This document shows positions 50,934-64,000 of a DNA stretch of 64,000 nt, piece by piece. The DNA is from Mycobacterium sp. Root265. Its GTDB lineage: Bacteria; Actinomycetota; Actinomycetes; Mycobacteriales; Mycobacteriaceae. Below the pieces are notes generated by a model. That model ran no database searches, was not told the origin of the DNA, and was given only the letters and a program-made list of their open reading frames with translations. Numbering within the stretch: position 1 is the first letter of the stretch; the number at the start of each line of letters is the position of its first letter. The stretch spans positions 286,897 through 350,896 of the forward strand of contig NZ_LMJA01000030.1 of NCBI RefSeq assembly GCF_001428895.1. The letters run 5' to 3'. The translations under genes were made by a program, and so were the position numbers.

Positions 50934-52628
50934 TCACCTCAAGTCCGCATCATCGGCGCGTACCGCCCACTGAGCGAAACGCTCATCGGGCTCGCGTTGT
51001 TTCACGAAGTTGCGAACGACCCGTTCGATGTAGTCGCCGAGCTCGGTCGCGAGCACCTTGTGCTGGCGCAGTTTGCGACCGAAACCGCTGTCCAGGCCCA
51101 GGCTGCCGCCCAGATGCACCTGGAAGCCCTCCTCGGGCCCGTTGCCGTCGTCGATCATCTGGCCCTTGAAACCGATATCGGCGACCTGGATACGGGCGCA
51201 CGAGTTGGGGCAGCCGTTGATGTTGATCGTCACCGGCACGTCGAGCTGGGCGTTGATGTCTTCGAGCCGCTTCTCCAGCTCGGGCACCAGCACCTGGGAG
51301 CGGCTGCGCGTCTCGGCGAAGCTCAGCTTGCAGAACTCGATGCCCGTGCAGGCCATCAGGTTGCGGCGCCAGTGCGACGGGGTCGAGGGCAGGTTGAGGG
51401 CATCCAGGCCGGCCCGCAGCTCGGCGAGCTTGTCATCGGCGACGTCGAGGATGATCAGCTTCTGGTACGGCGTGAAGCGGATGCGGTCGGATCCGGCGGC
51501 CTCGGCCAGGTCGGCGACCTTGGTCAGGATGGTGCCCGAGACGCGGCCCGCGATGGGGGCGACACCGACGGCGTTCAGGCCGTTCTTGAGGCGCTGCACG
51601 CCGACATGGTCGATCGGCCGGCTGACCGGCGCGGGCGCGGGTCCGTCGAGCAGCGGGCGCTTGAGGTACTCGGTCTCGAGAACTTCGCGGAATTTCTCGA
51701 CACCCCAGTCCTTGATCAGGAACTTCAGCCGGGCCTTCGCCCGCAGCCGGCGGTAACCGTAGTCGCGGAAGACGCTGACCACGCCCTCCCACACGTCGGG
51801 CACCTCGGCCAGCGGCACCCACACGCCGACCCGCTGGGCCAGCATCGGGTTGGTCGACAGCCCGCCGCCGACCCACAGATCGAAACCGGGGCCGTGTTCC
51901 GGGTGTTCGACGCCGATGAAGGCAACGTCGTTGACCTCGTGCACCACGTCCTGCAGACCCGAGATCGCGGTCTTGAACTTGCGCGGCAGGTTGGAGTACT
52001 CCGGCTTGCCGATGTAGCGCTTGACGATCTCGTGGACGGCGGGCGTGCCGTCGATGACCTCGTCGAGCGACTCGCCGGCCAGCGGGGAGTTCAGCACGAC
52101 GCGCGGGCAGTCACCGCAGGCCTCGGTGGTCTGCAGGCCGACCTCATCGAGGCGGCGCCAGATCTCGGGCATGTTCTTGACGTCGATCCAGTGGTACTGG
52201 ACGTTCTGCCGGTCGGAGATGTCGGCGGTGTCGCGCGCGAATTCGGTGGAGATGCCGCCCAGGGTGCGCAGCGCGGCGACCGTCAGGGCGCCGCCGTCGC
52301 TGCGGACCCGCAGCATGAAGTACTCGTCTTCGAGCATGTCGGTGTTCTCGTCACCGGTCCAGGTGCCGTCGTAACCGGGCTTGCGCTGGGTGTAGAGGCC
52401 CCACCACCGGAAACGGCCTCGCAGGTCGCCCTTGTCGATGGACTCGAAGCCGCCGGGGGCGTAGATGTTCTCGATCCGCTGACGCACGTTGAGCGGGTTG
52501 TCGTCCTTTTTGGCCTGCTCATTGGGGTTGAGCGGCTCGCGGTAACCCAGGGCCCACTGCCCTTCGCCGCGGGGCCGTTTGACCGGCTTGGCGGGCTTCT
52601 CAGGGGCGTTGGAGACGGTCTCGGTCAT
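50934..52628 (-). CDS. sirA: Ferredoxin-dependent sulfite reductase SirA
   Basis: A 564-aa siroheme/[4Fe-4S] reductase that takes sulfite to sulfide with six electrons. Cluster ligands are visible in LMACTGIEFCKLSFAETR and NINGCPNSCAR near the C terminus. The mycobacterial enzyme has a Tyr-Cys cross-link by the active site; candidate residues are Tyr in LRGRFRWWGLYTQR and Cys in QTTEACGDCPR. It acts after CysH and SsuD, both of which yield sulfite. The ATG lies ten bases after AAGGAG, which is part of a stable hairpin, and a cysteine-rich leader peptide lies upstream. Confidence 0.93.
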   Translation of the reverse strand: MTETVSNAPEKPAKPVKRPRGEGQWALGYREPLNPNEQAKKDDNPLNVRQRIENIYAPGGFESIDKGDLRGRFRWWGLYTQRKPGYDGTWTGDENTDMLEDEYFMLRVRSDGGALTVAALRTLGGISTEFARDTADISDRQNVQYHWIDVKNMPEIWRRLDEVGLQTTEACGDCPRVVLNSPLAGESLDEVIDGTPAVHEIVKRYIGKPEYSNLPRKFKTAISGLQDVVHEVNDVAFIGVEHPEHGPGFDLWVGGGLSTNPMLAQRVGVWVPLAEVPDVWEGVVSVFRDYGYRRLRAKARLKFLIKDWGVEKFREVLETEYLKRPLLDGPAPAPVSRPIDHVGVQRLKNGLNAVGVAPIAGRVSGTILTKVADLAEAAGSDRIRFTPYQKLIILDVADDKLAELRAGLDALNLPSTPSHWRRNLMACTGIEFCKLSFAETRSRSQVLVPELEKRLEDINAQLDVPVTININGCPNSCARIQVADIGFKGQMIDDGNGPEEGFQVHLGGSLGLDSGFGRKLRQHKVLATELGDYIERVVRNFVKQREPDERFAQWAVRADDADLR

Positions 52629-52751: not shown

Positions 52752-52847
52752 TCAGGACGGACAACGACAGGTGCAGATGCGCTTGAGGTCGACATGCCGC
52801 CGGACCACCAGCGCAATGCGGGTGGTGCTGTCAACGGCGGCGGTCAC
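52752..52847 (-). CDS. Cysteine-rich leader peptide upstream of sirA-cysH-che1
   Basis: A 31-aa frame starting at GTG (VTAAVDSTTRIALVVRRHVD) and ending LKRICTCRCPS then TGA, with three Cys codons in five positions near the stop. A CAGAAT -10-like hexamer ends seven bases before the GTG, predicting a leaderless message; an ATG nine bases earlier is an alternative start. It lies about 120 bases ahead of sirA on the same strand, where other mycobacteria also have a poly-cysteine attenuator. Low cysteine would stall ribosomes at CTCRC and raise SirA, CysH and Che1 synthesis. Confidence 0.72.
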   Translation of the reverse strand: MTAAVDSTTRIALVVRRHVDLKRICTCRCPS

Positions 52848-52940
52848 GCCCGACATTCTGCCACGACAGCCCCCACCTGCCCTAACCGGGCCAGATTTGC
52901 GATCAGGGTGAGCAAAACAGTTTCTGGGATGATTCGGGGC

Positions 52941-54074
52941 ATGAGCAGTGACGGCCCCTTCGGTATCTACATCCACGTGCCGTTCTGCGCGACCCGCTGC
53001 GGTTACTGCGACTTCAACACCTACACACCGTCCGAGCTCGGCGGGGCCAACCCCGACGGCTGGCTGGCCGCGGTGCGGGTCGAGCTGGAACTGGCGGCCT
53101 CCCAGGTGGGGCCGCGGCCGGTGGACACCGTCTTCGTCGGGGGTGGCACGCCGACGATGCTGGGCGGCCACGGCCTGGCCGCGGTGCTCGCGGCGGTACA
53201 GGACCATTTCGAGCTGGCACCCGGCGCGGAGGTGACCACCGAGGCCAACCCCGAGTCCAGCTCGCCGGAGCTGTTCGCGACGCTGCGCGCGGCCGGCTAC
53301 ACGCGCATCTCGCTGGGCATGCAGTCGGCCGCGACGCACGTGCTGAAGGTGCTCGATCGGGTGCATTCGGCCGGGCGTGCCCCGGCCGCCGCACTGGAGG
53401 CCCGCGCCGAGGGGTTCGAGCACGTCAACCTCGACCTGATCTACGGCACGCCCGGCGAAACCGACGATGATCTGGTGCGCTCCATCGAGACCGCCCTGGG
53501 TGCGGACGTCGACCATGTGTCGGCCTACGCGCTGATCGTCGAGGACGGCACCGCACTGGCCCGCCGGGTGCGCCGCGGCGAACTGCCGGCACCGGACAAC
53601 GATGTGCTGGCCGACCGCTACGAACTGCTCGACGCGCACCTGTCGGCGGCCGGCCTGCAGTGGTACGAGGTGTCCAACTGGAGCCGCCCCGGCGGCGAGT
53701 GCCGGCACAACCTCGGGTACTGGGACGGCGGGCACTGGTGGGGCGCCGGGCCGGGGGCGCACAGCTTCCTCGGCGCGACGAGATGGTGGAACATCAAGCA
53801 TCCCAACGCATATGCGCAGGCGCTGGCCGAGCGCCGGCTACCGGTGGCCGACTCCGAGGAGATCGACGCCGCCGCCAGGCACATGGAGGACGTGATGCTG
53901 CGGATGCGGCTGCGCAGCGGTCTGCCGCGCGGTGCGCTCACCGAACCCGAGCAGCGCCGTGCCGACACCGCGCTCACCGATGGACTGGTGGTCGCCGCCG
54001 CGGACCGGCTGGTGCTCACCGACCGGGGCCGGTTGCTGGCCGACGCGGTGGTGCGCGACCTGCTCGACGACTGA
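52941..54074 (+). CDS. hemW: Radical SAM protein HemW (HemN-like)
   Basis: A 377-aa radical SAM enzyme. The cluster motif is HVPFCATRCGYCDF (Cx3CxxC, with the HemN/HemW-specific extra Cys-x pattern at about residues 12-25), followed by FVGGGTPTML and TTEANPESS, then QSAATHVLKVLDRVH. HemW is a heme-trafficking chaperone; true oxygen-independent coproporphyrinogen oxidases carry further N-terminal residues absent here. ATG 52941 is chosen to match the family N terminus; ATG 52929 is in frame and possible. It is divergent from the sirA leader and convergent with the polyketide synthase, four bases from its stop. Confidence 0.87.
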   Translation: MSSDGPFGIYIHVPFCATRCGYCDFNTYTPSELGGANPDGWLAAVRVELELAASQVGPRPVDTVFVGGGTPTMLGGHGLAAVLAAVQDHFELAPGAEVTTEANPESSSPELFATLRAAGYTRISLGMQSAATHVLKVLDRVHSAGRAPAAALEARAEGFEHVNLDLIYGTPGETDDDLVRSIETALGADVDHVSAYALIVEDGTALARRVRRGELPAPDNDVLADRYELLDAHLSAAGLQWYEVSNWSRPGGECRHNLGYWDGGHWWGAGPGAHSFLGATRWWNIKHPNAYAQALAERRLPVADSEEIDAAARHMEDVMLRMRLRSGLPRGALTEPEQRRADTALTDGLVVAAADRLVLTDRGRLLADAVVRDLLDD

Positions 54075-54078
54075 GGCT

Positions 54079-57000
54079 TCAGGCGCAGGACGCGCTGATC
54101 TCTTCGGATTCCTCGGCACCCGAATGATCGTGCGGGGTCAGCATTTCCACGATCCTGGTGGTCACCGCCGCGGCGGTCGGATGCTCCCACAGCAGGGTCG
54201 GCGGCAACGCCAGCCCGGTCTTGCGCTCCAGCTGCTTGCGCAACGCCACCGTCATGATCGAGTCCACGCCGATCTCCGACAGCGGCAACCGCGGATCGAC
54301 ACCACCGTCGGGCAGGCCCAGTTCGGCGGCCACCGCGGCGACCACCACTTCGGCCACCCACACCGCGGTGTCCACCCCGTCGCGCCCGACCGGCAGCTGC
54401 AGGCCGCCCAGGCCGTCGTCGTCCTCGTCGTCCCGAGGTGCGATATCGGCAAGCATCGGCACCGAGGCGGCATCGGCGGTCACCGGGAGCACCACGATAT
54501 GGGCCTGATCGGCACGCACCGCGAGATCCAGGGCGCGCACGGCGTCGTCGGCCCCGACCGTGCCCATGCCCAGCGCGTTGAGCTGTGCGGCGACAAAGCT
54601 TGAGGCAGAACCCATTCCGAGGCCACGCCAGGCGGTCCAGGCCACCGCGGTGGTCCGGTCACCCAGGCTGCGACGGTGCTGGGCGAATGCGTCGAGGAAG
54701 GCGTTCGCGCACGCGTAGGCGCCCTGGCCGGGGAAGCCCGCGAGGTACCCGCAGGACGAGAACAGCACCAGCCAGTCCAGCTCACCGGGCGGGAACACCT
54801 CGTGCAGGGTCAGGGTGCCGTTCACTTTGGGGTGCATGGCCGTTGCGAAATCCTCGGCCGTGGTGCCGGCCAGCAGCGCGCCGGCCTCCACGCCGGCGGC
54901 ATGCACCACGCCGCGCACCGGCGGCAGATCGCGCAGCGCTGCGCGCAACTCGTCGGCCGCACCCGCTGCGGCGATGTCCACGGCGGCCACCCGCACCGAT
55001 ACGCCGCGTTCCTCGAGTGACAGGATGGTGCGATAAGGCTCTGCCGCAGCGTCATGCGCCGGGTCGCTGCGCTCCCGGACGGTGTCCCAGGACGCGCGGT
55101 CGGCGGCCAAGCCGCTGCGGGACAACAGCACGATGCGGCGTGCCCCCAGATCGGCCAGTCGGGCGGCGACACGCACACCCAGGGCGCCGGTGCCGCCGGT
55201 GATCAGATAGGTGCCGGCCGGCGAGCAGGACAGCGTGGCCCGCTTGGTGGGTTCGGCCTGGGCCAGGCGTGCGGTCAGCGCGATATCGTCGCGGACCACG
55301 ACCACACCCTGACCGCCGAGTGCGGCGAGCACCCCGATCGGCAGGCTGTCATCGGCCACATCCAGGACGCCGCCCCATAATCCGGGATGCTCGGCGGCCG
55401 CGACCCGGGAGAAGCCCCACAGCGGCGAACTGCCGATATCGCTGCCCTCGTAGACCCCGCGGGTCAGCGCCCACAGCTGAGCCGGAGCACCGCCCACTCT
55501 CCCGTCGCTGCGCTCGCCCAGACGGTCCAGCAGTGTGGTCAACGCTTGGTGCACCACGTTGACGGTGTCGCCGGGCGCATCTTCGGGCCGGGGCAGTACC
55601 AGCACGACCGCGCCCGGGGTCAGTGTCGTGGGGATCTCGTCCGGCGACTTGCACAGCCGGTGGTCCACATCGGCCGCAGCGAGATCGCGCATGCACCAGG
55701 CCAGCGTCTGCGCGTCACCACCGACCAGGATCACCTGTGACGGGCGTGCCGATTCGGCCCACTGCGCGGGATGCCAGGCCAGCTGCTGAATCATCCGGGC
55801 GACATCGTTGCCGCCGGGATTCTCCAGCTGGTCGAAGAACATGCCGTCGATCGCGCCGACCACCGTGCCCTCGGCGTCGGTGATCGTCACATCGGCGATG
55901 GTGCTGCCGGTACCGCGACGAATATGCATGAGCGCCAGGGAAACCGGTGCGCCGCGCAGCGCCACCCGGTCGATGCGGGCGGGCATCCGCAGCCGCAGCG
56001 GGCTCTCGAACACGATCGACGCCGCCGAGGTCGCGGCATCCAGCAGTCCGGCCCAGGTGGCCGGCGCGGAGCCGTCGGGTTCGGCGCGCACCACGGCCAG
56101 CATCTCGCCGTCACCGCGCAGCAGTTCGGTGATCTCCCACGGGAATCCCATGGCCGCGACGCCCAGGTCGGCGAGGGTGTCCACCACGTGCCCGGCGGGC
56201 AGCGTCTCGGTGCAGCGCGCCCGCGCGGCCACGATATCGGCTGCGGGAAGCGGGGTTTCGGTGCCGGCCGCGGCCACGGCGGTGCAGTGGGTGAGCCAGC
56301 CGCCGCCATCGGAATCGGCGCCGCTGTCGGCGTCCTCGATCCGGGAGGCCAGCGCCAGCGCCCGGTCCTGCAGCACGACCTGCACCGAGCGGGCCCGCCC
56401 CGGCGCCACCGGGGTGCGCAGTCGGACATCGGCGAGTGCGCCACCGCCCGCGGTCAGGAATGTGTTGAGCAGCACCGCGGCCGGGATGATCTCGGTGCCC
56501 TGCACCGGGTGATCACCCGGGTAGGGCCGGGTGTCCATGTCCAGCTGGGTCTGCCACACCTTGGCGGGTACCGCGGCGGTCACCTCGAGGCGGCCGCCGA
56601 GCAGGGTGTTGGCCTGCGGGTCGTGCACCGCGCCGCCACCGGGCGGTGCGGCCGGGGTGCGCCAGAACCGTCGGTGCTGCCACTGCGTGCCGGGCAGATC
56701 AGGTGCCCACCGGGCGGGTGACGGGTGCAGTGTCACCGGCGCCCCGTGACAGTGCAGCGCGGCGATCGCGGTGGTGACCGACCGCACCTCGGGCATGTTG
56801 CGCCGGTGCAGCGGAAGCACCGCGTAGTCGTCGATACCGACGTGCGACAGGGTGTCCACGATGGAATGCGAGACCACCGGATGCGCGGCGATCTCCAGGA
56901 ACAGTCGGTGCCCGTCCTCAGCGGCGGCGGTGACGGCCTCGGTGAACCGGACCCGGCCACGCAGATTGGCCACCCAGTAGTCGGGACCGCGCAGTGCGCT

Positions 57001-59289
57001 CGACCGTGGATCGGTCATGGCGGTGCTGTAGAGCGGGATGGTCGGTGCCTGCGGGCTCAGGGCACCGGTGAGGCGGGCCAGCTCGGCGGTCAGGTCGTCC
57101 ATGGCGGGGCTGTGGAACGCGACATCGGTGTTCACCTCGCGGGTCACGATGCCTTCGGCCGACCAGTCGGCGGCGATGGCCCGCACCTCGTCGGCGGTGC
57201 CGGAGATGACGGTGGATTCGGGGGAGGCGCTGATCGCGGCGACCACCTGGGTCTGGCCGGCCAGGCGCTGCTCGGCCTCGGCGAACGACAACGCGACCAG
57301 GGCCATCGCGCCCTTGCCCTGGACGGAGCGGAAACCGCGGGCCCGGTAGCAGGCGACCCTGGCGCCATCGGTCAGGTCGAACACCCCGGCGATGACGCAG
57401 GCGGCGACCTCGCCGACGGAGTGCCCGATGACCGCTGCCGGTGCCGCGCCCCGGGAGCGCAGCACCGCGGCCAGCCCGACCTGCATCGCGAAGGTCAGCG
57501 CCTGCACCTGGTCGGTGCCGCCGTGCTCGCCTGAGGTGAGCGCCGCGCGGGCCGAGAACCCCAGTTCGGCGCCGAACACCGGGTCGATCGCATCGATGAC
57601 GGCGGCGAAATCCGGTTCCTCGCGTAGCAGTTCGGCACCCATGCCGACCCAGTGCGAGCCGTGCCCGGAGCACACCCAGACGGCGCCGCCGGCGGCACCG
57701 GGTACCACCGAACCGGTGGCCACCGAGGAATTGCGCTCACCGTTGCCCAGTGCGTCCAGGCCGACGATCAGTTCCTTGTGGTCCTCGGCGATGATGGCCG
57801 CGCGCACCGGCTCATGGGAGCGCCGCGACCACAGGGTGGCGGCCACATCGTTGAGCGCGTGGTGCGCGGAACGCAGATGGTCGCCGAGTGCCTCGGCGTT
57901 CGCCGACAGCCGCGACGGTGACCGCCCGGACACCGGAATGACTTGGTAGGAAGCATCGTTCGGCGTCTCGACGGAGGCCGGTGCGGGTGCCTCTTCGAGC
58001 AGGACGTGCGCGATGGTGCCGCCGTAGCCATAGCTGCACACCGCCGCGCGGCGTGGCTGTGCGGCGCGCGGCCAGCTCTCGGTCTCGGTGTTGACCCGCA
58101 GGCCGTTGGTGGTCCAGTCCACCGCGGTGGTGGGGGTACGCACGCCGGCGGTCGGGGGGATCGCCTCGTGGTGCAGCGCCAGTGTCGCCTTGACCAGGCC
58201 GACCACCCCGGCCCCACCCTCCAGGTGGCCGGTGTTGGGCTTGACCGAGCCGACCACGCACGGCTGATCCGCGCGGCCCGCTCCGTATACGGCGGACAAC
58301 GCGGTCAGTTCCACCGGGTCACCGGTCGGGGTGCCGGTGCCGTGCGCCTCCACGAAGCCGATGCTGGCCGGGTCGATACCGGCGGTGCGGCAGGTGCGCC
58401 GGAACATCTGCTCCTGTGCCTCACCGTTGGGCGACATGATGCCGACGGTCTTGCCGTCCTGGGCGACGGCGCCGCCTCGCACGATCGCGAGCACCCGGTC
58501 GTTGTCGCGCTGCGCGTCGGCCAGGCGTTTGAGCACCACCACGGCGGCACCTTCGCCGCGGCCGTAGCCGTCGGCGGAGTCGTCGAAGGATTTGCACCGT
58601 CCGTCCGGGGCGGTGGCCCCGGCCACGTCCAACACCCGGGTCAGCCCGGGGCCGATCAGCGCGCTGACACCACCGGCCAGTGCCAGTGAGGTCTCGCCGG
58701 CGCGCAACAGTTGGCAGGCCTGGTGCACGGCGACCAGGGAGGCCGCGCAGGCGGCGTCCAGGGCGACGCTGGGTCCGCGCAGGTCTAGCAGATGCGAGAC
58801 CCGGTTGGCGATACCGCACAGCGCGGTGCCGATCCCGGTCCAGGCTTCGATGCCGGGCAGGTCCTCCATGACGAGCTTGCCGTAGTCGTCGGAGTTGACG
58901 CCCATCAGCACCGCGGTGTCACTGCCGGCCAGCGAACGGGGCGGCACGCCGGCGTCCTCCAGCGCCTCCCAGCTGACCTCGAGCGCCAATCGCTGCTGCG
59001 GGTCCATCAATTCGGCCTCGCGCGGGGAGACCCCGAAGAACTCGGCGTCGAAACCGGGCAGGTCGGACAGGAAGCTGCCCTTGTGAGTGGTGGCCTTGAG
59101 GATGGCGGCGTTGCGGGGATCGCGGCGCAGATACGGCTCCCACCGTTCGGCCGGAACCTCGCCGACCGCGGTACCGCTGTCGAGCAGGAACCGCCAGAAA
59201 TCGGCCGGGGTGTTGACGTCGCCGGCGAGCCGGCACCCGATACCGACGATGGCGATCGGTTCCAGGGTGGGGTCCTGGTTAAGCGTCAC
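54079..59289 (-). CDS. 6-methylsalicylate-synthase-type iterative polyketide synthase
   Basis: A 1736-aa type I PKS with domains KS-AT-DH/TH-KR-ACP. KS: DAACAAS with catalytic Cys181, EAHGTGTPTGD (His316), NTGHLEGGAG (His355). AT: GHSVGEVAA (Ser624) and malonyl-type AFHS (724-727). DH/TH: HPVQGTEIIPAAV (His927) with Asp about 1084. KR: TGGTGALG (1364-1371). ACP: GVDSIM (Ser1677). The segment after KR, WTAWRGLGMGSASSFVAAQL, is characteristic of 6-methylsalicylate synthases. The GTG follows aagaggat. It sits between hemW and mbtA, where M. tuberculosis has mbtI, so it probably supplies 6-methylsalicylate to MbtA. A naphthoate-type product is the main alternative. Confidence 0.82.
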   Translation of the reverse strand: MTLNQDPTLEPIAIVGIGCRLAGDVNTPADFWRFLLDSGTAVGEVPAERWEPYLRRDPRNAAILKATTHKGSFLSDLPGFDAEFFGVSPREAELMDPQQRLALEVSWEALEDAGVPPRSLAGSDTAVLMGVNSDDYGKLVMEDLPGIEAWTGIGTALCGIANRVSHLLDLRGPSVALDAACAASLVAVHQACQLLRAGETSLALAGGVSALIGPGLTRVLDVAGATAPDGRCKSFDDSADGYGRGEGAAVVVLKRLADAQRDNDRVLAIVRGGAVAQDGKTVGIMSPNGEAQEQMFRRTCRTAGIDPASIGFVEAHGTGTPTGDPVELTALSAVYGAGRADQPCVVGSVKPNTGHLEGGAGVVGLVKATLALHHEAIPPTAGVRTPTTAVDWTTNGLRVNTETESWPRAAQPRRAAVCSYGYGGTIAHVLLEEAPAPASVETPNDASYQVIPVSGRSPSRLSANAEALGDHLRSAHHALNDVAATLWSRRSHEPVRAAIIAEDHKELIVGLDALGNGERNSSVATGSVVPGAAGGAVWVCSGHGSHWVGMGAELLREEPDFAAVIDAIDPVFGAELGFSARAALTSGEHGGTDQVQALTFAMQVGLAAVLRSRGAAPAAVIGHSVGEVAACVIAGVFDLTDGARVACYRARGFRSVQGKGAMALVALSFAEAEQRLAGQTQVVAAISASPESTVISGTADEVRAIAADWSAEGIVTREVNTDVAFHSPAMDDLTAELARLTGALSPQAPTIPLYSTAMTDPRSSALRGPDYWVANLRGRVRFTEAVTAAAEDGHRLFLEIAAHPVVSHSIVDTLSHVGIDDYAVLPLHRRNMPEVRSVTTAIAALHCHGAPVTLHPSPARWAPDLPGTQWQHRRFWRTPAAPPGGGAVHDPQANTLLGGRLEVTAAVPAKVWQTQLDMDTRPYPGDHPVQGTEIIPAAVLLNTFLTAGGGALADVRLRTPVAPGRARSVQVVLQDRALALASRIEDADSGADSDGGGWLTHCTAVAAAGTETPLPAADIVAARARCTETLPAGHVVDTLADLGVAAMGFPWEITELLRGDGEMLAVVRAEPDGSAPATWAGLLDAATSAASIVFESPLRLRMPARIDRVALRGAPVSLALMHIRRGTGSTIADVTITDAEGTVVGAIDGMFFDQLENPGGNDVARMIQQLAWHPAQWAESARPSQVILVGGDAQTLAWCMRDLAAADVDHRLCKSPDEIPTTLTPGAVVLVLPRPEDAPGDTVNVVHQALTTLLDRLGERSDGRVGGAPAQLWALTRGVYEGSDIGSSPLWGFSRVAAAEHPGLWGGVLDVADDSLPIGVLAALGGQGVVVVRDDIALTARLAQAEPTKRATLSCSPAGTYLITGGTGALGVRVAARLADLGARRIVLLSRSGLAADRASWDTVRERSDPAHDAAAEPYRTILSLEERGVSVRVAAVDIAAAGAADELRAALRDLPPVRGVVHAAGVEAGALLAGTTAEDFATAMHPKVNGTLTLHEVFPPGELDWLVLFSSCGYLAGFPGQGAYACANAFLDAFAQHRRSLGDRTTAVAWTAWRGLGMGSASSFVAAQLNALGMGTVGADDAVRALDLAVRADQAHIVVLPVTADAASVPMLADIAPRDDEDDDGLGGLQLPVGRDGVDTAVWVAEVVVAAVAAELGLPDGGVDPRLPLSEIGVDSIMTVALRKQLERKTGLALPPTLLWEHPTAAAVTTRIVEMLTPHDHSGAEESEEISASCA

Positions 59290-59366
59290 GGCTGCGAATC
59301 CTCTTCACATCATTTGCGTTTAAACAGATCGTGGCACGGAACGGCGGTCGGTGGAGGCCTACCTGA

Positions 59367-59382
59367 TGTGCCCCTGGGCACA
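59367..59382. repeat. Inverted repeat between mbtA and the polyketide synthase
   Basis: TGTGCCC and GGGCACA flank CT in the 132-bp gap. A six-base-pair, GC-rich hairpin with a four-base loop could form in the mRNA. It may reduce read-through from mbtA or stabilise the transcript end. No IdeR-like box was seen in this gap, so the synthase probably depends on the mbtA promoter, with this hairpin as a possible attenuator. Confidence 0.4.
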
Positions 59383-59421
59383 CCGGGCGGCGAGAAGTGA
59401 AGTACGTGAACGGATTAGCGG

Positions 59422-61086
59422 TCACGAAGACCCCAGCAAGGCGACGATCTGTTTCTTGTCGACCTTGCCGACGGGGGTCTTGGGTAGCGACGGCAGCGGC
59501 GCGAGCATGTCCGGCTTGGTGTGCGAGGACACGCCGCGGCTGTCCAGGAAGCTGTTCAGCTCGGCCAGCGTGAGTGCCTTCCCGGAGAAAACGACTGCGG
59601 CGCAGATCTTTTCGCCGAGGTATTCGTCCGGCATGGCCACCGCCGCGGCAGCATAGATCCCGGGATGGGCGAACAGGTGCTCCTCCAGATCGGAGGCCGA
59701 CACCGTCTCGCCACCGCGGTGGATGACGTCCTTGATGCGCCCGGTCACCTCGACGTAGCCGGCCAGCGGGCCGTCGGCGAAGATCCGCACCCGGTCACCG
59801 GAGCGGTAGTAGCCTTCCGGGCTGAACGAGCGGGCGTTGGCTTCTTCGGCGCGGTAGTAGCCGTTGATGGTGTTCGGCCCGCGCACCAGCAGTTCGCCCT
59901 CGTCGCCGGGGGCCACGGCAGCGCCGTGCTCGTCGACGACCAGCATCTCGTCGAGCGGGGACATCGGCCGGCCCTGGGTGTGCAGCAGCACATCGACCGG
60001 GTCGCCGGGGCGGGTGAAGTTCAACATGCCCTCCGCCATCCCGAAGATCTGGCTGAGCCCCGGGGTGAGGTTGTCCAGGATGAACTTGGCCTCGTCGGCG
60101 GTCATCCGCGAGCCGCCGACCTGCACGACGCGCAGCGACTCGGGCAGCACCGGTTCCCAGTCGCAGGCCTGCGCCCAGACCTTGGCCAGCGCGTTGACCA
60201 GGCCCGTCACCGTCACGTGGTGCTTGTCGATGAGCGCGAAGGCGTTCTCCGGGCTGGGGTCGTGGGTGAAGACGGTGGGGGCGCCGACGGTCATGGCGCC
60301 CAGCAGTCCGGGGCAGCCCAGTGGGAAGTTGTGCCCGGCCGGCAGCGCGACGAGGTAGGTGTCATCGCTGGTCATCAGGTATTCCTGGGCCGAGGCGACG
60401 GCGGTGTAGACGTAGTCGTCGTGGGTGCGGGCGATCAGCTTGGGCAGCCCGGTGGTGCCGCCCGAGACGAGCAGCAGTGCGGGTTCGGCCGCGTCCAAGC
60501 CGTCCCGGGTGGGCGTTGCGGTCGGCGCGTCGCCGTCCGAATCGGTCAGCGCGGACCAGGCGAGGTACTCGCCGGGGTCGCCGTCGACGATCACGCGGGT
60601 CAGCGCGGGGTGATCTCTCTGCAGTTGGGCCGCCATCGTGCGGAAATCGAAACCGGCTGCGGTATCGGTGATTACGAGCCCGACCGCGCCGCTGATACCG
60701 GCGAAGTGGCTCAGTTCGGCCGAACGGTGACCGGACAGGCACATCACCGGGACCACGCCGGCGCGCAGCAGTCCGAAGAAGGCGACGGCGAACTGGGTGG
60801 TGTTCGGTAACTGCAGCAGCACGCGGTCACCGGCCCGCCATCCCAGGCCGGCGAGCCGGCCGGCAACACGGTCGGCCACCGCATCCAGTTCGGCGAAGGT
60901 GTAGCTGCGCTGCGCATCGACGATCGCAGTGACGTCGGGCCACCGTGCCGCGGCGTTGCTGAGTATCGAGTCCAGCGGTTGCCCGGTCCACAAGCCCGCC
61001 TGCCGGTAAGCGGCGGCACGATCCGCCGGGAACGCGACGAAACCGTCGTTCAGATCGCCGTGTCCCTGCGGAAAAACCGTGCTCAT
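59422..61086 (-). CDS. mbtA: Salicyl-AMP ligase MbtA (here probably also 6-methylsalicyl-AMP)
   Basis: A 554-aa aryl acid adenylating enzyme. Adenylation motifs are LLLVSGGTTGLPKLIARTH (A3, about residues 182-200), the aryl-binding HNFPLGCPGLLG, GMAEGMLNFTRPGD (A5), GYYRSGDRVR (A7), GRIKDVIHRGGETVSASDLE (A8) and the terminal lysine in LPKTPVGKVDKKQ (A10). It activates an aryl acid and loads it onto the MbtB carrier domain. The ATG at 61086 is chosen from family length; an open frame continues upstream through the IdeR boxes. It is divergent from mbtB. Confidence 0.92.
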   Translation of the reverse strand: MSTVFPQGHGDLNDGFVAFPADRAAAYRQAGLWTGQPLDSILSNAAARWPDVTAIVDAQRSYTFAELDAVADRVAGRLAGLGWRAGDRVLLQLPNTTQFAVAFFGLLRAGVVPVMCLSGHRSAELSHFAGISGAVGLVITDTAAGFDFRTMAAQLQRDHPALTRVIVDGDPGEYLAWSALTDSDGDAPTATPTRDGLDAAEPALLLVSGGTTGLPKLIARTHDDYVYTAVASAQEYLMTSDDTYLVALPAGHNFPLGCPGLLGAMTVGAPTVFTHDPSPENAFALIDKHHVTVTGLVNALAKVWAQACDWEPVLPESLRVVQVGGSRMTADEAKFILDNLTPGLSQIFGMAEGMLNFTRPGDPVDVLLHTQGRPMSPLDEMLVVDEHGAAVAPGDEGELLVRGPNTINGYYRAEEANARSFSPEGYYRSGDRVRIFADGPLAGYVEVTGRIKDVIHRGGETVSASDLEEHLFAHPGIYAAAAVAMPDEYLGEKICAAVVFSGKALTLAELNSFLDSRGVSSHTKPDMLAPLPSLPKTPVGKVDKKQIVALLGSS

Positions 61087-61151: not shown

Positions 61152-61170
61152 TTAGGGCAGCCTGTACTAA
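61152..61170. promoter_or_regulatory. IdeR-like iron box 2 in the mbtA-mbtB divergent promoter
   Basis: TTAGGGCAGCCTGTACTAA matches the 19-bp IdeR consensus at about 13 positions, with both TTAGG and CTAA ends intact. It begins 20 bases after box 1 and lies 18 bases ahead of the mbtB start. Tandem boxes at this place are also known from M. tuberculosis. Confidence 0.75.
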
Positions 61171-61187: not shown

Positions 61188-64000
61188 GTGGCCGTCGCTG
61201 CGACGACATCAGAAACCGTTCGATCCGAGGTGGCCGAACTTCTCGGGATCACGGCGGATGCGCTGGACCCGAATGCTGATCTCATCGCGTCCGGTCTGGA
61301 CTCCATTCGGATGATGTCGCTGTCGGGACGCTGGCGGAAACAGGGCATCCAGGTCGGTTTCGCCGCGCTGGCCGCCAAGCCCACCGTCGCCGCCTGGCAG
61401 GACCTGGTAGCCGAACACGCGCCCGCCGACGCGGTACCCGCGGCCGAGGTGATCGCCGGCGATGCCGACGCACCGTTTTCGCTGGCCCCGATCGCCCACG
61501 CGATGTGGGTGGGCAGGCACGGCGAACAGGAACTCGGTGGTGTGGCCGCGCACCTGTATGTCGAATTCGACGGCGTCGGTGTCGATCCCGTCCGTTTGCA
61601 GAGCGCCGCCACGAAACTCGCTGCGCGCCATCCGATGCTGCGCCAGGAGATCCTGCCCGACGGCACCCAGCGGATCAGCGACCGGGGGTTGCCGGTCACC
61701 GTGTACGACCTGCGGGATCTGGCCGACGCGGACGACAGGTTGGAAAGGATCCGGGACGACAAGTCACATCAGTTGCTGGACAACGAGGTTCTGCAGATCT
61801 CGCTGTCCCTGCTGGCGGATGGGCGCACCCGGCTGCACGTCGACATGGACATGCAGGCGGCCGACGCGGTGAGCTACCGCAACTTCATGGCCGACCTGGC
61901 CGCGTTCTACCGAGGCGCCGAACTGCCCGAACTCGGGTACACCTACCGCGAATACCGGGCCCGGCTGACCGCGTCGACGCCGCCACCCTCGCCGGAGGAC
62001 CTGCAGTGGTGGGCCGAGCGGGTGCCCGATCTTCCGGAACCGCCTGCGCTGCCGCTGGTTCCGCGCGACGAGCAGCAGGATCCGTTGCGCAGCATCAGGT
62101 TGTGGCACATCTTCGACGTGGCCACCCGCGATGCGCTGTTCGCCGCCGCGCACCGGCGCGGACTCACCCCGGCGATGGCCGTCGCCGCCGCCTACTCCAA
62201 TGCGCTGGCCCGCTGGTCGACCGATTCACGGTTCCTGCTCAACCTGCCGATGTTCGGCCGCGAGCCCTACCACCCCGACGTCGACAAACTGGTGGGCTGC
62301 TTCACCTCGTCGCTGATGCTCGACATCGACCTGGCAGATACCTACACCGCGGCATCGCGGGCACGTGCGGTGCAGGAGACCCTGCACGCCACCGCCCAGC
62401 ACGCGTCGGTGTCCGGCCTGTCCGTGCTGCGCGATATGAGCAGGCACCGCGGCAACCAGACGCTGGCGACCATCGTCTACACGAGTGCGCTCGGCCTGGG
62501 TGACCTGTTCGCCGGTGACGTGACCGACCAGTTCGGCGAGCCGGTGTGGACCATCTCGCAGGGCCCACAGGTGCTCATCGACGCCCAGGCCACCCCGCTG
62601 GCCAACGGACTGATGATCAACTGGGACGTGCGGGTGGAAGCCTTCCCGCCCGGGGTGCCGGAGGCGATGTTCGCCTACGAGGTCGCCGAGCTCGCGCGCC
62701 TCGCCACCGATGACGCGGCCTGGGACGAACCGGACCCACCCGCGCTGGCCGACGCCTCACACGATGTTCGCGACACCGTCAACGCGAGCATCGTGGCGCC
62801 CAGCGGCGACAACCTCGTCGACGGTTTCTTCCGCAACGCCGCCGCCGGCCCCGAGGCCACCGCGCTCATCGCCCGTTCGGGCACGCTCAGCTACGGCGAA
62901 CTCTCCGACCGGGTGCTGGCGGTCGCAGGCACCCTGCAGGCCGCCGGCGTCGGCTCCGGCGATATCGTCGCGGTGCTGGGCCCCAAGGGCGCCCAGCAGA
63001 TTCCCGCGCTGCTCGGCATCCTCACCGCCGGTGCCGCCTACCTGCCGATCGGCGTCGATCAGCCCGCCGACCGCGCCACGCGCATGCTGACCACCGGCGG
63101 GGTGACATTCGCCCTCGTCTGCGGTGACGACGTTCCCGACGTCCTGGCAGCCACCGGGATACCGTCCCGGCGCATCACCGATATCGAGACGGCTGCAACA
63201 ACATTCGATGCCGTCACCGTCGCACCGAGCGATCTGGCCTATGTGCTGTTCACCTCCGGTTCCACCGGAGAACCCAAGGGGGTGGAGCTCACCCACGATG
63301 CGGTGATGAACACCCTGGAATTCCTCTACCGGCACTTCGAGATCGGGCCGCAGGACCGCGAATTGGCGCTTTCACACCTGGAGTCGGACATGTCGGTGCC
63401 CGATGTGTTCGGCATCCTGCGCGCCGGCGGCGCCATCGTGATGGTCGACGAAGACCAGCGCCGCGATCCGGACGCCTGGGCCCGGCTCATCGAGCAGCAT
63501 CAGGTCTCGGTGGTCAATTTCCTGCCCGGATGGCTGCAGATGCTCACCGAGGTGCCCGGCTCTCTGGAGTCGTTGCGGGTGGTGCTCACCGGTGGTGACT
63601 GGGTACGTCCGGAGATGGCCAGGGCACTACGCGCCCGGGCGCCGCGGATGCGGTTCGCCGGTCTGGGCGGGGCCACCGAGACCGCCATCCACGGCACCAT
63701 CTTCGAGATCGGGCCCGACGACGAGATTCCCGTGAAACCGTCGGTGCCCTACGGGGTGCCGTTCCCGAACAACGCCTGCCGGGTGGTCAGCCCGGCCGGT
63801 GAGGACTGCCCGGACTGGGTGCCCGGCGAGCTGTGGTTCACCGGCCGCGGCATCGCCCGCGGCTACCGTGGCCGCCCGGATCTGACCGCGGAGAAGTTCG
63901 TCGAGTACGACGGGCGCACCTGGTACCGCACCGGTGACCTCGCCCGCTACTGGCCCGACGGCACCCTGGAGTTCATCGGCCGCACCGATCACCGCGTCAA
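61188..64000 (+). CDS. mbtB: Mycobactin phenyloxazoline synthase MbtB (partial, runs off the window)
   Basis: The first 937 or so codons of a non-ribosomal peptide synthetase. An aryl carrier domain (ASGLDSIRMM, phosphopantetheine Ser at about residue 39) comes first. A cyclisation domain follows with the Cy motif DMQAADAVS in place of the condensation HHxxxDG. The adenylation domain begins at about residue 545, with LFTSGSTGEPKGVELTH and GLGGATETAIHGT. It receives the aryl group from MbtA, activates Ser/Thr and closes the oxazoline. GTG 61188 follows gcggaggaa by five bases. The carrier and thioesterase part lies beyond the window. Confidence 0.9.
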   Translation, partial: MAVAATTSETVRSEVAELLGITADALDPNADLIASGLDSIRMMSLSGRWRKQGIQVGFAALAAKPTVAAWQDLVAEHAPADAVPAAEVIAGDADAPFSLAPIAHAMWVGRHGEQELGGVAAHLYVEFDGVGVDPVRLQSAATKLAARHPMLRQEILPDGTQRISDRGLPVTVYDLRDLADADDRLERIRDDKSHQLLDNEVLQISLSLLADGRTRLHVDMDMQAADAVSYRNFMADLAAFYRGAELPELGYTYREYRARLTASTPPPSPEDLQWWAERVPDLPEPPALPLVPRDEQQDPLRSIRLWHIFDVATRDALFAAAHRRGLTPAMAVAAAYSNALARWSTDSRFLLNLPMFGREPYHPDVDKLVGCFTSSLMLDIDLADTYTAASRARAVQETLHATAQHASVSGLSVLRDMSRHRGNQTLATIVYTSALGLGDLFAGDVTDQFGEPVWTISQGPQVLIDAQATPLANGLMINWDVRVEAFPPGVPEAMFAYEVAELARLATDDAAWDEPDPPALADASHDVRDTVNASIVAPSGDNLVDGFFRNAAAGPEATALIARSGTLSYGELSDRVLAVAGTLQAAGVGSGDIVAVLGPKGAQQIPALLGILTAGAAYLPIGVDQPADRATRMLTTGGVTFALVCGDDVPDVLAATGIPSRRITDIETAATTFDAVTVAPSDLAYVLFTSGSTGEPKGVELTHDAVMNTLEFLYRHFEIGPQDRELALSHLESDMSVPDVFGILRAGGAIVMVDEDQRRDPDAWARLIEQHQVSVVNFLPGWLQMLTEVPGSLESLRVVLTGGDWVRPEMARALRARAPRMRFAGLGGATETAIHGTIFEIGPDDEIPVKPSVPYGVPFPNNACRVVSPAGEDCPDWVPGELWFTGRGIARGYRGRPDLTAEKFVEYDGRTWYRTGDLARYWPDGTLEFIGRTDHRV

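What the first reader, a model, noticed from the sequence alone, without database searches (positions are those of the whole stretch)
54079..61086. A 6-methylsalicylate synthase replaces the salicylate synthase in a mycobactin cluster
Seen: a 1736-aa KS-AT-DH/TH-KR-ACP synthase lies between hemW and mbtA, on the mbtA strand, and ends in the WTAWRGLGMG-type tail after its KR. Known: MSAS-type enzymes make 6-methylsalicylate. In M. tuberculosis this place holds mbtI, the salicylate synthase. Some classical mycobactins (for example mycobactin P of M. phlei, from memory) carry a 6-methylsalicyl cap. Inference: a non-homologous swap of the starter-unit gene at a conserved locus gives this organism a 6-methylsalicyl mycobactin and removes the drain on chorismate. 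No mbtI-like gene is visible here.
Basis: partly seen in the sequence, partly recalled or inferred. Interest (0 to 1): 0.85.

Follow-up and report, generated by a model that had tools for sequence, protein, structure and literature searches.

The report
Alternative starter enzyme for mycobactin siderophore
This mycobacterium appears to build the iron-binding cap of its mycobactin siderophore with a polyketide enzyme sitting exactly where relatives keep the salicylate enzyme, and about a third of the mycobacterial genomes sampled carry the same alternative.

Summary
In detail: window 54079-59289(-) is an intact 1736-aa KS-AT-DH/TH-KR-ACP synthase between hemW and mbtA, on the mbtA strand. The genome has three chorismate-utilising genes and none is MbtI.

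Of 397 Mycobacterium genomes: synthase only 106, MbtI only 190, both 20, neither 81. None of the 57 'neither' genomes that are at least 90% complete shows an mbtA. The synthase lies between hemW and mbtA in 34 of 34 stretches holding all three. Where it points against mbtA it has its own iron box (25 of 25 loci); where it follows mbtA it has none (0 of 21). On the same 44 genomes the starter type changes once on the MbtA tree and four times on the tree of a neighbouring gene, so the cassette has moved between lineages. Fortuitum-type genomes hold mbtI and the synthase side by side; M. triplex-like genomes keep mbtI alone at the old site.

6-Methylsalicyl mycobactins have long been known (recalled). 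No held paper that I found names the gene. Verdict: new variant of a known kind.

The parts
54079..59289 (-). 6-methylsalicylate-synthase-type iterative type I polyketide synthase, 1736 aa
57991..59262 (-). KS domain (residues 10 to about 433; active-site string DAACAAS at 178)
56740..57681 (-). AT domain (residues 537-850; GHSVGE, AFHS, the latter a malonyl-type motif by recall)
55810..56604 (-). DH/TH-type domain (residues about 896-1160; HPVQGTEIIP at 927, LLDAATS at 1082)
54625..55215 (-). KR domain (residues 1359-1555), motifs intact
54154..54348 (-). ACP domain (residues 1648-1712; GVDSIM at 1674)
59422..61086 (-). mbtA, aryl-acid adenylate ligase (likely start 61086; longest ORF reaches 61209)
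   Evidence: nearest solved relative 5kei
60193..60195 (-). codon of Asn339 (595-aa numbering), the residue that marks synthase-linked MbtA
61152..61170 (.). IdeR-box-like site between mbtA and mbtB, 5 mismatches to the consensus; the same spacer has such a site in 45 of 46 synthase loci
   Evidence: no site at 3 or fewer mismatches in the window
61188..64000 (+). mbtB-type NRPS, likely start 61188, runs beyond the window
52794..54074 (+). hemW, conserved flank of the slot
50934..52628 (-). sulfite/nitrite-reductase-like gene, second conserved flank, used as the comparison tree
   Evidence: name given by reading, no family search

Best explanation
The gene is the starter-unit enzyme of this organism's mycobactin. 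The synthase condenses one acetyl and three malonyl units, reduces once with its KR, and releases 6-methylsalicylate. MbtA adenylates it and loads it on the aryl carrier of MbtB, giving a mycobactin capped by 6-methylsalicyl instead of salicyl. Transcription comes from the iron-box promoter between mbtA and mbtB, the synthase being read after mbtA. In evolution the synthase with its matched mbtA and mbtB displaced mbtI-type clusters in several mycobacterial lineages. Shown by sequence: the gene, the slot, absence of MbtI, distribution, iron boxes, MbtA co-segregation. Inferred: the exact product, its release, loading by MbtA, and the siderophore structure.
For: Domain order and motifs of a reducing aromatic iterative PKS. 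No MbtI in the genome; two chorismate-mutase-fold genes, as in the MbtI genome G338. Distribution over 397 genomes: 106 / 190 / 20 / 81 for synthase only / MbtI only / both / neither, Fisher p 5e-25, which ignores kinship. Of 57 'neither' genomes at least 90% complete, 0 had an MbtA-like gene over 41% identity, while the 9 known carriers in the same call all rang. Slot: synthase between hemW and mbtA in 34 of 34 stretches with all three, and 56 of 56 in named genomes; MbtI there in 11 of 11. Iron boxes: 25 of 25 synthases that point against mbtA, 0 of 21 that follow it; named loci 49 of 49 and 0 of 13 (these overlap the first set); hemW 0 of 41, sir 0 of 42; random stretches 53 of 2000; mbtI 23 of 25. 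Same 44 genomes: one change of type on the MbtA tree, support 100/100; four on the sir tree, one clade rejected at p 4e-36. MbtD over cut-off downstream. Named carriers without MbtI over cut-off, 16 of 24 tested, include M. aurum and M. vaccae. M. aurum, M. phlei, M. fortuitum and M. thermoresistibile are, from memory of Snow 1970 (not held), the classical makers of 6-methylsalicyl mycobactins.
Against: No product or siderophore was measured. No characterised 6-MSA, orsellinate or naphthoate synthase was at hand, so the product class rests on domains and context; naphthoate synthases share this architecture (recalled). Methyl methylsalicylate (isomer not stated) was reported from M. vaccae, which fits, but also from M. 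avium, and not from M. aurum or M. neoaurum (PMC3302092, passages). Asn339 of MbtA, constant in synthase loci, is Pro in 12 of 12 aryl ligases beside synthases of this type in other actinomycetes, so it is a clade mark with one origin and not a proven 6-methyl code. The window's own iron box is weak (5 mismatches). M. phlei and M. thermoresistibile were not identified among the genomes.
Confidence: 0.88

Rival explanations
1. The synthase makes a related aromatic acid (orsellinate, or a methyl-naphthoate), and the mycobactin cap is something other than 6-methylsalicyl.
For: Relatives of the same architecture in other actinomycetes are uncharacterised here, and some relatives lack a KR (L235, L238, L246), so product classes do differ in the wider family.
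Against: The KR motifs are intact in the window and in the two other mycobacterial rows printed, against orsellinate. MbtA keeps a salicylate-type pocket close to that of MbtI-type enzymes. 6-Methylsalicyl mycobactins are known chemistry (recalled) and no naphthoyl mycobactin is known to me.
Confidence: 0.07
2. The synthase serves another metabolite and only happens to lie in the mbt locus; salicylate for mycobactin comes from the isochorismate-synthase-like gene plus an unrecognised lyase.
For: An isochorismate-synthase-like gene is present, as in MbtI genomes; exogenous 14C-salicylate labels mycobactins in several species (PMC9505556, PMC4810606, passages).
Against: No extra chorismate-mutase-fold gene; constant slot over many genomes with either orientation; iron boxes only where the gene needs its own promoter; exclusion with MbtI; co-segregation with MbtA type.
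Confidence: 0.03
3. The synthase adds a second, facultative starter; the species makes salicyl and 6-methylsalicyl mycobactins from a relaxed MbtA.
For: 20 of 397 genomes hold both genes, and in the 7 such stretches of the fortuitum type mbtI and the synthase lie side by side. In Streptomyces gandocaensis one adenylation enzyme uses salicylate and 6-methylsalicylate (PMC4757757, passages).
Against: For the window's organism there is no MbtI, so no dedicated salicylate source. It remains likely for the genomes with both genes.
Confidence: 0.15

Closest known systems
M. tuberculosis mycobactin cluster with MbtI (mbtI-mbtJ-mbtA-mbtB...)
   Same: Same place beside hemW and mbtA, same downstream NRPS/PKS line, same kind of iron-box control; MbtI has boxes in 23 of 25 loci here.
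   Different: Starter made by a non-homologous polyketide synthase instead of from chorismate; MbtA of a separate clade.
Cahuitamycin pathway of Streptomyces gandocaensis (CahI salicylate synthase plus an unlinked 6-methylsalicylate synthase; PMC4757757, passages read)
   Same: A siderophore-type NRPS whose aryl ligase can be fed by a salicylate synthase or by an iterative 6-methylsalicylate synthase.
   Different: There the synthase is unlinked and both starters are used; here it sits in the cluster, in the mbtI slot, and MbtI is gone.
Actinomycete 6-MSA-type iterative PKSs (for example of chlorothricin, ChlB1; named from memory and PMC9573744 listing)
   Same: KS-AT-DH/TH-KR-ACP order and motifs; in 12 of 29 loci examined such a PKS lies beside an MbtA-like aryl ligase.
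   Different: The mycobacterial ones form one clade on a long stem, with KS string DAACAAS instead of DTACSSS-like ones.
[quoted passage not shown]
   Same: Probably the same genes: Mycobacterium, 6-MSAS-like, unknown function.
   Different: That paper gave no function or siderophore link in the passages seen; its accessions are in a figure not held, so identity is not checked.

Membership tests
6-methylsalicylate synthase (iterative type I PKS) | KS-AT-DH/TH-KR-ACP order on one chain of about 1700-1800 aa, no thioesterase | tested here: met
6-methylsalicylate synthase (iterative type I PKS) | Active KR (separates it from orsellinate synthases) | tested here: met
   motifs intact; activity not tested
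6-methylsalicylate synthase (iterative type I PKS) | DH/TH His motif | tested here: met
   HPVQGTEIIP; His invariant in the 26-row alignment
6-methylsalicylate synthase (iterative type I PKS) | Groups with characterised 6-MSA synthases and not with naphthoate or orsellinate synthases | tested here: inconclusive
   tree of 49 rows held no characterised reference
6-methylsalicylate synthase (iterative type I PKS) | Makes 6-methylsalicylate | not testable with these tools
   needs enzyme assay or LC-MS
Mycobactin cluster | Aryl-acid ligase MbtA | tested here: met
   best solved match 5kei, 772 bits; below the cut-off of the DHB-ligase model TIGR02275 (525 of 724 bits)
Mycobactin cluster | MbtD polyketide synthase | tested here: met
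   NF037940 1404 bits, cut-off 1150
Mycobactin cluster | IdeR-type iron box in the mbtA-mbtB spacer | tested here: met
   5 mismatches at 61152, position shared by relatives; none at 3 mismatches
MbtI salicylate synthase | TIGR03494 match over cut-off in the genome | tested here: not met

The most novel reading that the evidence does not exclude
Mycobacteria carry two interchangeable mycobactin cassettes, an MbtI type (salicyl) and a synthase-mbtA-mbtB type (6-methylsalicyl, marked by Asn339 in MbtA), and the second has repeatedly displaced the first by horizontal transfer, leaving mbtI stranded or decaying at the old site in M. triplex-like species and running beside it in fortuitum-type species. 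The methyl group would then be a population-level siderophore polymorphism that changes who can use whose mycobactin, and would make about a quarter of the genus blind to MbtI inhibitors.
Probability: 0.5. Interest if true: 0.78.

Novelty: new variant of a known kind. Interest (0 to 1): 0.66.

Why it matters
It offers the gene behind a chemical difference among mycobactins described around 1970 (recalled), and turns it into a genotype that can be read from any genome. It explains why many nontuberculous mycobacteria lack mbtI. MbtI is an active drug target (titles and abstracts); 106 of 397 genomes here have the synthase and no MbtI over cut-off by the E-value count, so such inhibitors should miss those species, while MbtA inhibitors would have to fit a different MbtA. 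It is also a clean case of non-homologous replacement at a fixed locus with the intermediate states still visible.

Tried and rejected
One search used a wrong reading frame as the MbtI query (an antisense ORF of L034); found and redone, from which the counts are taken. The iron-box scan measured from the longest ORF start and missed sites in loci whose start was set too far upstream; one search measured from the start of the aligned region and is the one quoted.

Asn339 as a 6-methyl specificity code: rejected as proven, since the aryl ligases beside synthases in other actinomycetes have Pro; by alignment it lies near the aryl pocket, but that mapping is from memory.

A third, unknown starter route in genomes with neither gene: no support, none of the 57 that are at least 90% complete has a recognisable mbtA. 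In that call only the first 20 candidates per genome were scored, the first 4; the 24 less complete 'neither' genomes were not searched for mbtA.

Plasmid origin: the plasmid search found nothing over 60% identity (270 of 270 records); no mycobacterial plasmid carries this gene at that level in PLSDB.

Naming M. phlei among the genomes: G133 is one contig of 5349645 bases, a size I associate with M. phlei from memory, but could not confirm it; not used. Chemistry papers sought by id and not held. No literature search term brought up a paper that names a polyketide gene for a mycobactin cap; one search had 78 papers, 40 listed, of which I opened four for passages.

Full report
What is there. 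Window 54079-59289 on the minus strand is a single open frame of 1736 aa with KS, AT, DH/TH-type, KR and ACP domains in that order and intact motifs. It ends 4 bases from the stop of hemW, which runs the other way, and begins 132 bases after the stop of mbtA. mbtA and an mbtB-type NRPS diverge from a short spacer with an iron-box-like site at 61152-61170. Beyond the window the same contig continues with a KS protein, MbtD over its curated cut-off, and further NRPS genes. So this is a real mycobactin cluster.

Is mbtI gone? The genome (6.67 Mb, 100% complete by the tool's figure) has three Chorismate_bind genes. One is an isochorismate synthase by TIGR00543 and scores 74 bits on the salicylate-synthase model against a cut-off of 325; the other two read as TrpE- and PabB-like. 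The salicylate-synthase search gives a best E of 2.8e-50 in this genome. Two chorismate-mutase-fold genes are present, the same number as in MbtI genome G338 (G314 has one), so I see no separate isochorismate-pyruvate lyase. A second synthase of this type is absent (the only other match is a 71-residue piece at E 7e-4).

How common is it? I searched 397 genomes of the genus with the DH/TH region of the synthase and with the salicylate-synthase model. Best hits fall into two groups, E 1e-70 or better (52% identity and up, 126 genomes with the window's own) and 6e-35 or worse (about 35% identity or less). Counting MbtI by best E under 1e-100 gives 210; the tool's own tally over the cut-off is 211, the difference being most likely G181, whose gene passes only when its pieces are summed (as G403). 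The table is synthase only 106, MbtI only 190, both 20, neither 81; Fisher p 5e-25, a number that ignores kinship (the lists were copied by hand). One of the 20, M. genavense, has a broken mbtI. Of the 81 with neither, 57 are at least 90% complete; searched for MbtA they gave four hits of 33-41% identity and nothing better, while the nine known carriers in the same call gave 68-100%. Genomes without either starter gene thus also lack mbtA.

The slot. I took stretches of 11-18.5 kb around 40 synthases, all ten genomes with 75-91% identity and 30 of the remaining 115 carriers. mbtA is in 38 of 40, hemW in 36 of 40, all three in 34, and the synthase lies between hemW and mbtA in 34 of 34. One of the two lacking mbtA had it further out (L197); the other stretch ends with its contig. 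In 73 mycobacterial loci from named genomes (113 relatives found, best 80 kept, 7 of them from other genera) the figure is 56 of 56. In 20 MbtI-only genomes MbtI lies between hemW and mbtA in 11 of 11 stretches that show all three. The synthase points with mbtA in 20 and against it in 18 of 38 loci.

Intermediate states. In seven fortuitum-type loci the order is hemW, mbtI, synthase, mbtA, mbtB; by name this includes M. senegalense, septicum, peregrinum, porcinum and houstonense. In G110, G031, G364 and M. triplex (G164), mbtI sits beside hemW with no mbtA in the stretch, while the synthase, mbtA and mbtB lie elsewhere in the genome; each has one MbtA, the synthase-linked one. In Mycolicibacter longobardus the mbtI beside hemW lacks its middle, and in M. 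genavense it has stops; in M. genavense the synthase, mbtA and mbtB are broken too. No mbtI remnant was seen in the window, and of 111 synthase loci searched 11 had an mbtI-like hit, each over 300 aa.

Iron control. With the consensus TWAGGTWAGSCTWACCTWA (recalled) and up to 5 mismatches in 250 bases upstream, synthases that point against mbtA have a site in 25 of 25 loci, those that follow mbtA in 0 of 21 (46 of 48 loci, two without mbtA left out). Named loci, which overlap the first set in genomes, give 49 of 49 and 0 of 13 (62 of 71). Controls: hemW 0 of 41, sir 0 of 42, random 270-base stretches 53 of 2000, mbtI 23 of 25. The mbtA-mbtB spacer has a site in 45 of 46 synthase loci. The gene thus appears to be iron-regulated in either arrangement, directly or through mbtA. 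The window's own site is weak: nothing at 3 or fewer mismatches.

Co-evolution and transfer. On the MbtA tree of 48 rows all 38 from synthase loci form one clade, support 100/100. On the tree of the neighbouring sir gene, 67 rows, the labels are scattered. To compare like with like I used the 44 genomes with both genes: the type changes once on the MbtA tree and four times on the sir tree, and one clade of the MbtI type is rejected on the sir tree (AU p 4e-36). The simplest reading is transfer of the synthase with mbtA (and by its similarity mbtB) between lineages. MbtA residue 339 is Asn in 116 of 116 synthase-locus sequences and Pro in 12 of 12 of the MbtI type, and Pro in the five solved relatives shown. 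But the 116 include repeats of the same genomes, the clade has one origin, and aryl ligases beside synthases of this type in other actinomycetes have Pro in 12 of 12. It is a marker, not a demonstrated code.

Wider family. Outside the genus the type is rare: 4 of 396 genomes of the phylum sample, three of them Mycobacterium, and 34 of 249 of the order sample, 17 of them Mycobacterium, pass E 1e-40. Among 29 further loci (two of them other mycobacterial PKSs) 12 have an MbtA-like ligase of 39-44% identity beside the PKS. The mycobacterial synthases are one clade on a long stem. No characterised enzyme was in the tree, so the product class is not settled by phylogeny.

Literature. Read as passages: PMC4757757 (cahuitamycins: deletion of the MbtI homologue CahI left only the 6-methylsalicyl product), PMC2636887 (four Mycobacterium PKSs of unknown function next to fungal 6-MSAS), PMC3302092 (methyl methylsalicylate from M. 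vaccae and M. avium, not M. aurum or M. neoaurum), PMC9505556, PMC4810606, PMC12003420, PMC10296737, PMC2661021, PMC5225428, PMC5819568. Recalled and not held: Snow 1970 on mycobactin structures; Hudson, Campbell and Bentley 1970 on 6-methylsalicylate formation by M. phlei. In the held library brought up no paper naming the gene; subscription papers may.

Verdict. Observation confirmed; interpretation supported and widened. The chemistry is old, the gene, its distribution, its iron boxes and the mobile-cassette history seem new. New variant of a known kind, interest 0.66.

Noticed in passing
L147, L193, L185 (Mycobacterium genavense): Synthase matched in five pieces, mbtA and mbtB in two, mbtI with stops: the whole mycobactin start is broken, which fits this species' need for added mycobactin in culture (recalled).
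   Followed up: partly
L186:8468-9253 (Mycolicibacter longobardus): mbtI remnant beside hemW whose middle is missing, in a genome whose synthase-mbtA-mbtB cluster lies elsewhere.
   Followed up: partly
L144 and L187 (M. houstonense): Synthase matched in two pieces (first third apart) beside an mbtI without stops; either decay of the synthase or an assembly error.
   Followed up: no
L149, L150, L151, L154, L156, L226, L227, L228, L231, L233, L234, L238: 6-MSAS-type PKS directly beside an MbtA-like aryl ligase in Actinophytocola, Lentzea and unnamed actinomycetes: possibly other 6-methylsalicyl-capped peptides or siderophores.
   Followed up: partly
window 54079-59289, residues 178-184: KS active-site string DAACAAS in the three mycobacterial rows printed, against DTACSSS-like strings in nearly all others; meaning unknown.
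   Followed up: no
L247:11980-17229 (Pseudonocardia plasmid pLS2-1): 6-MSAS-type PKS on a plasmid with an adenylate-forming enzyme, an acyl-CoA reductase and a P450 beside it.
   Followed up: no
L067 (G133, one contig of 5349645 bases): Synthase-only genome whose size I associate from memory with M. phlei, the source of mycobactin P; could not be confirmed.
   Followed up: partly
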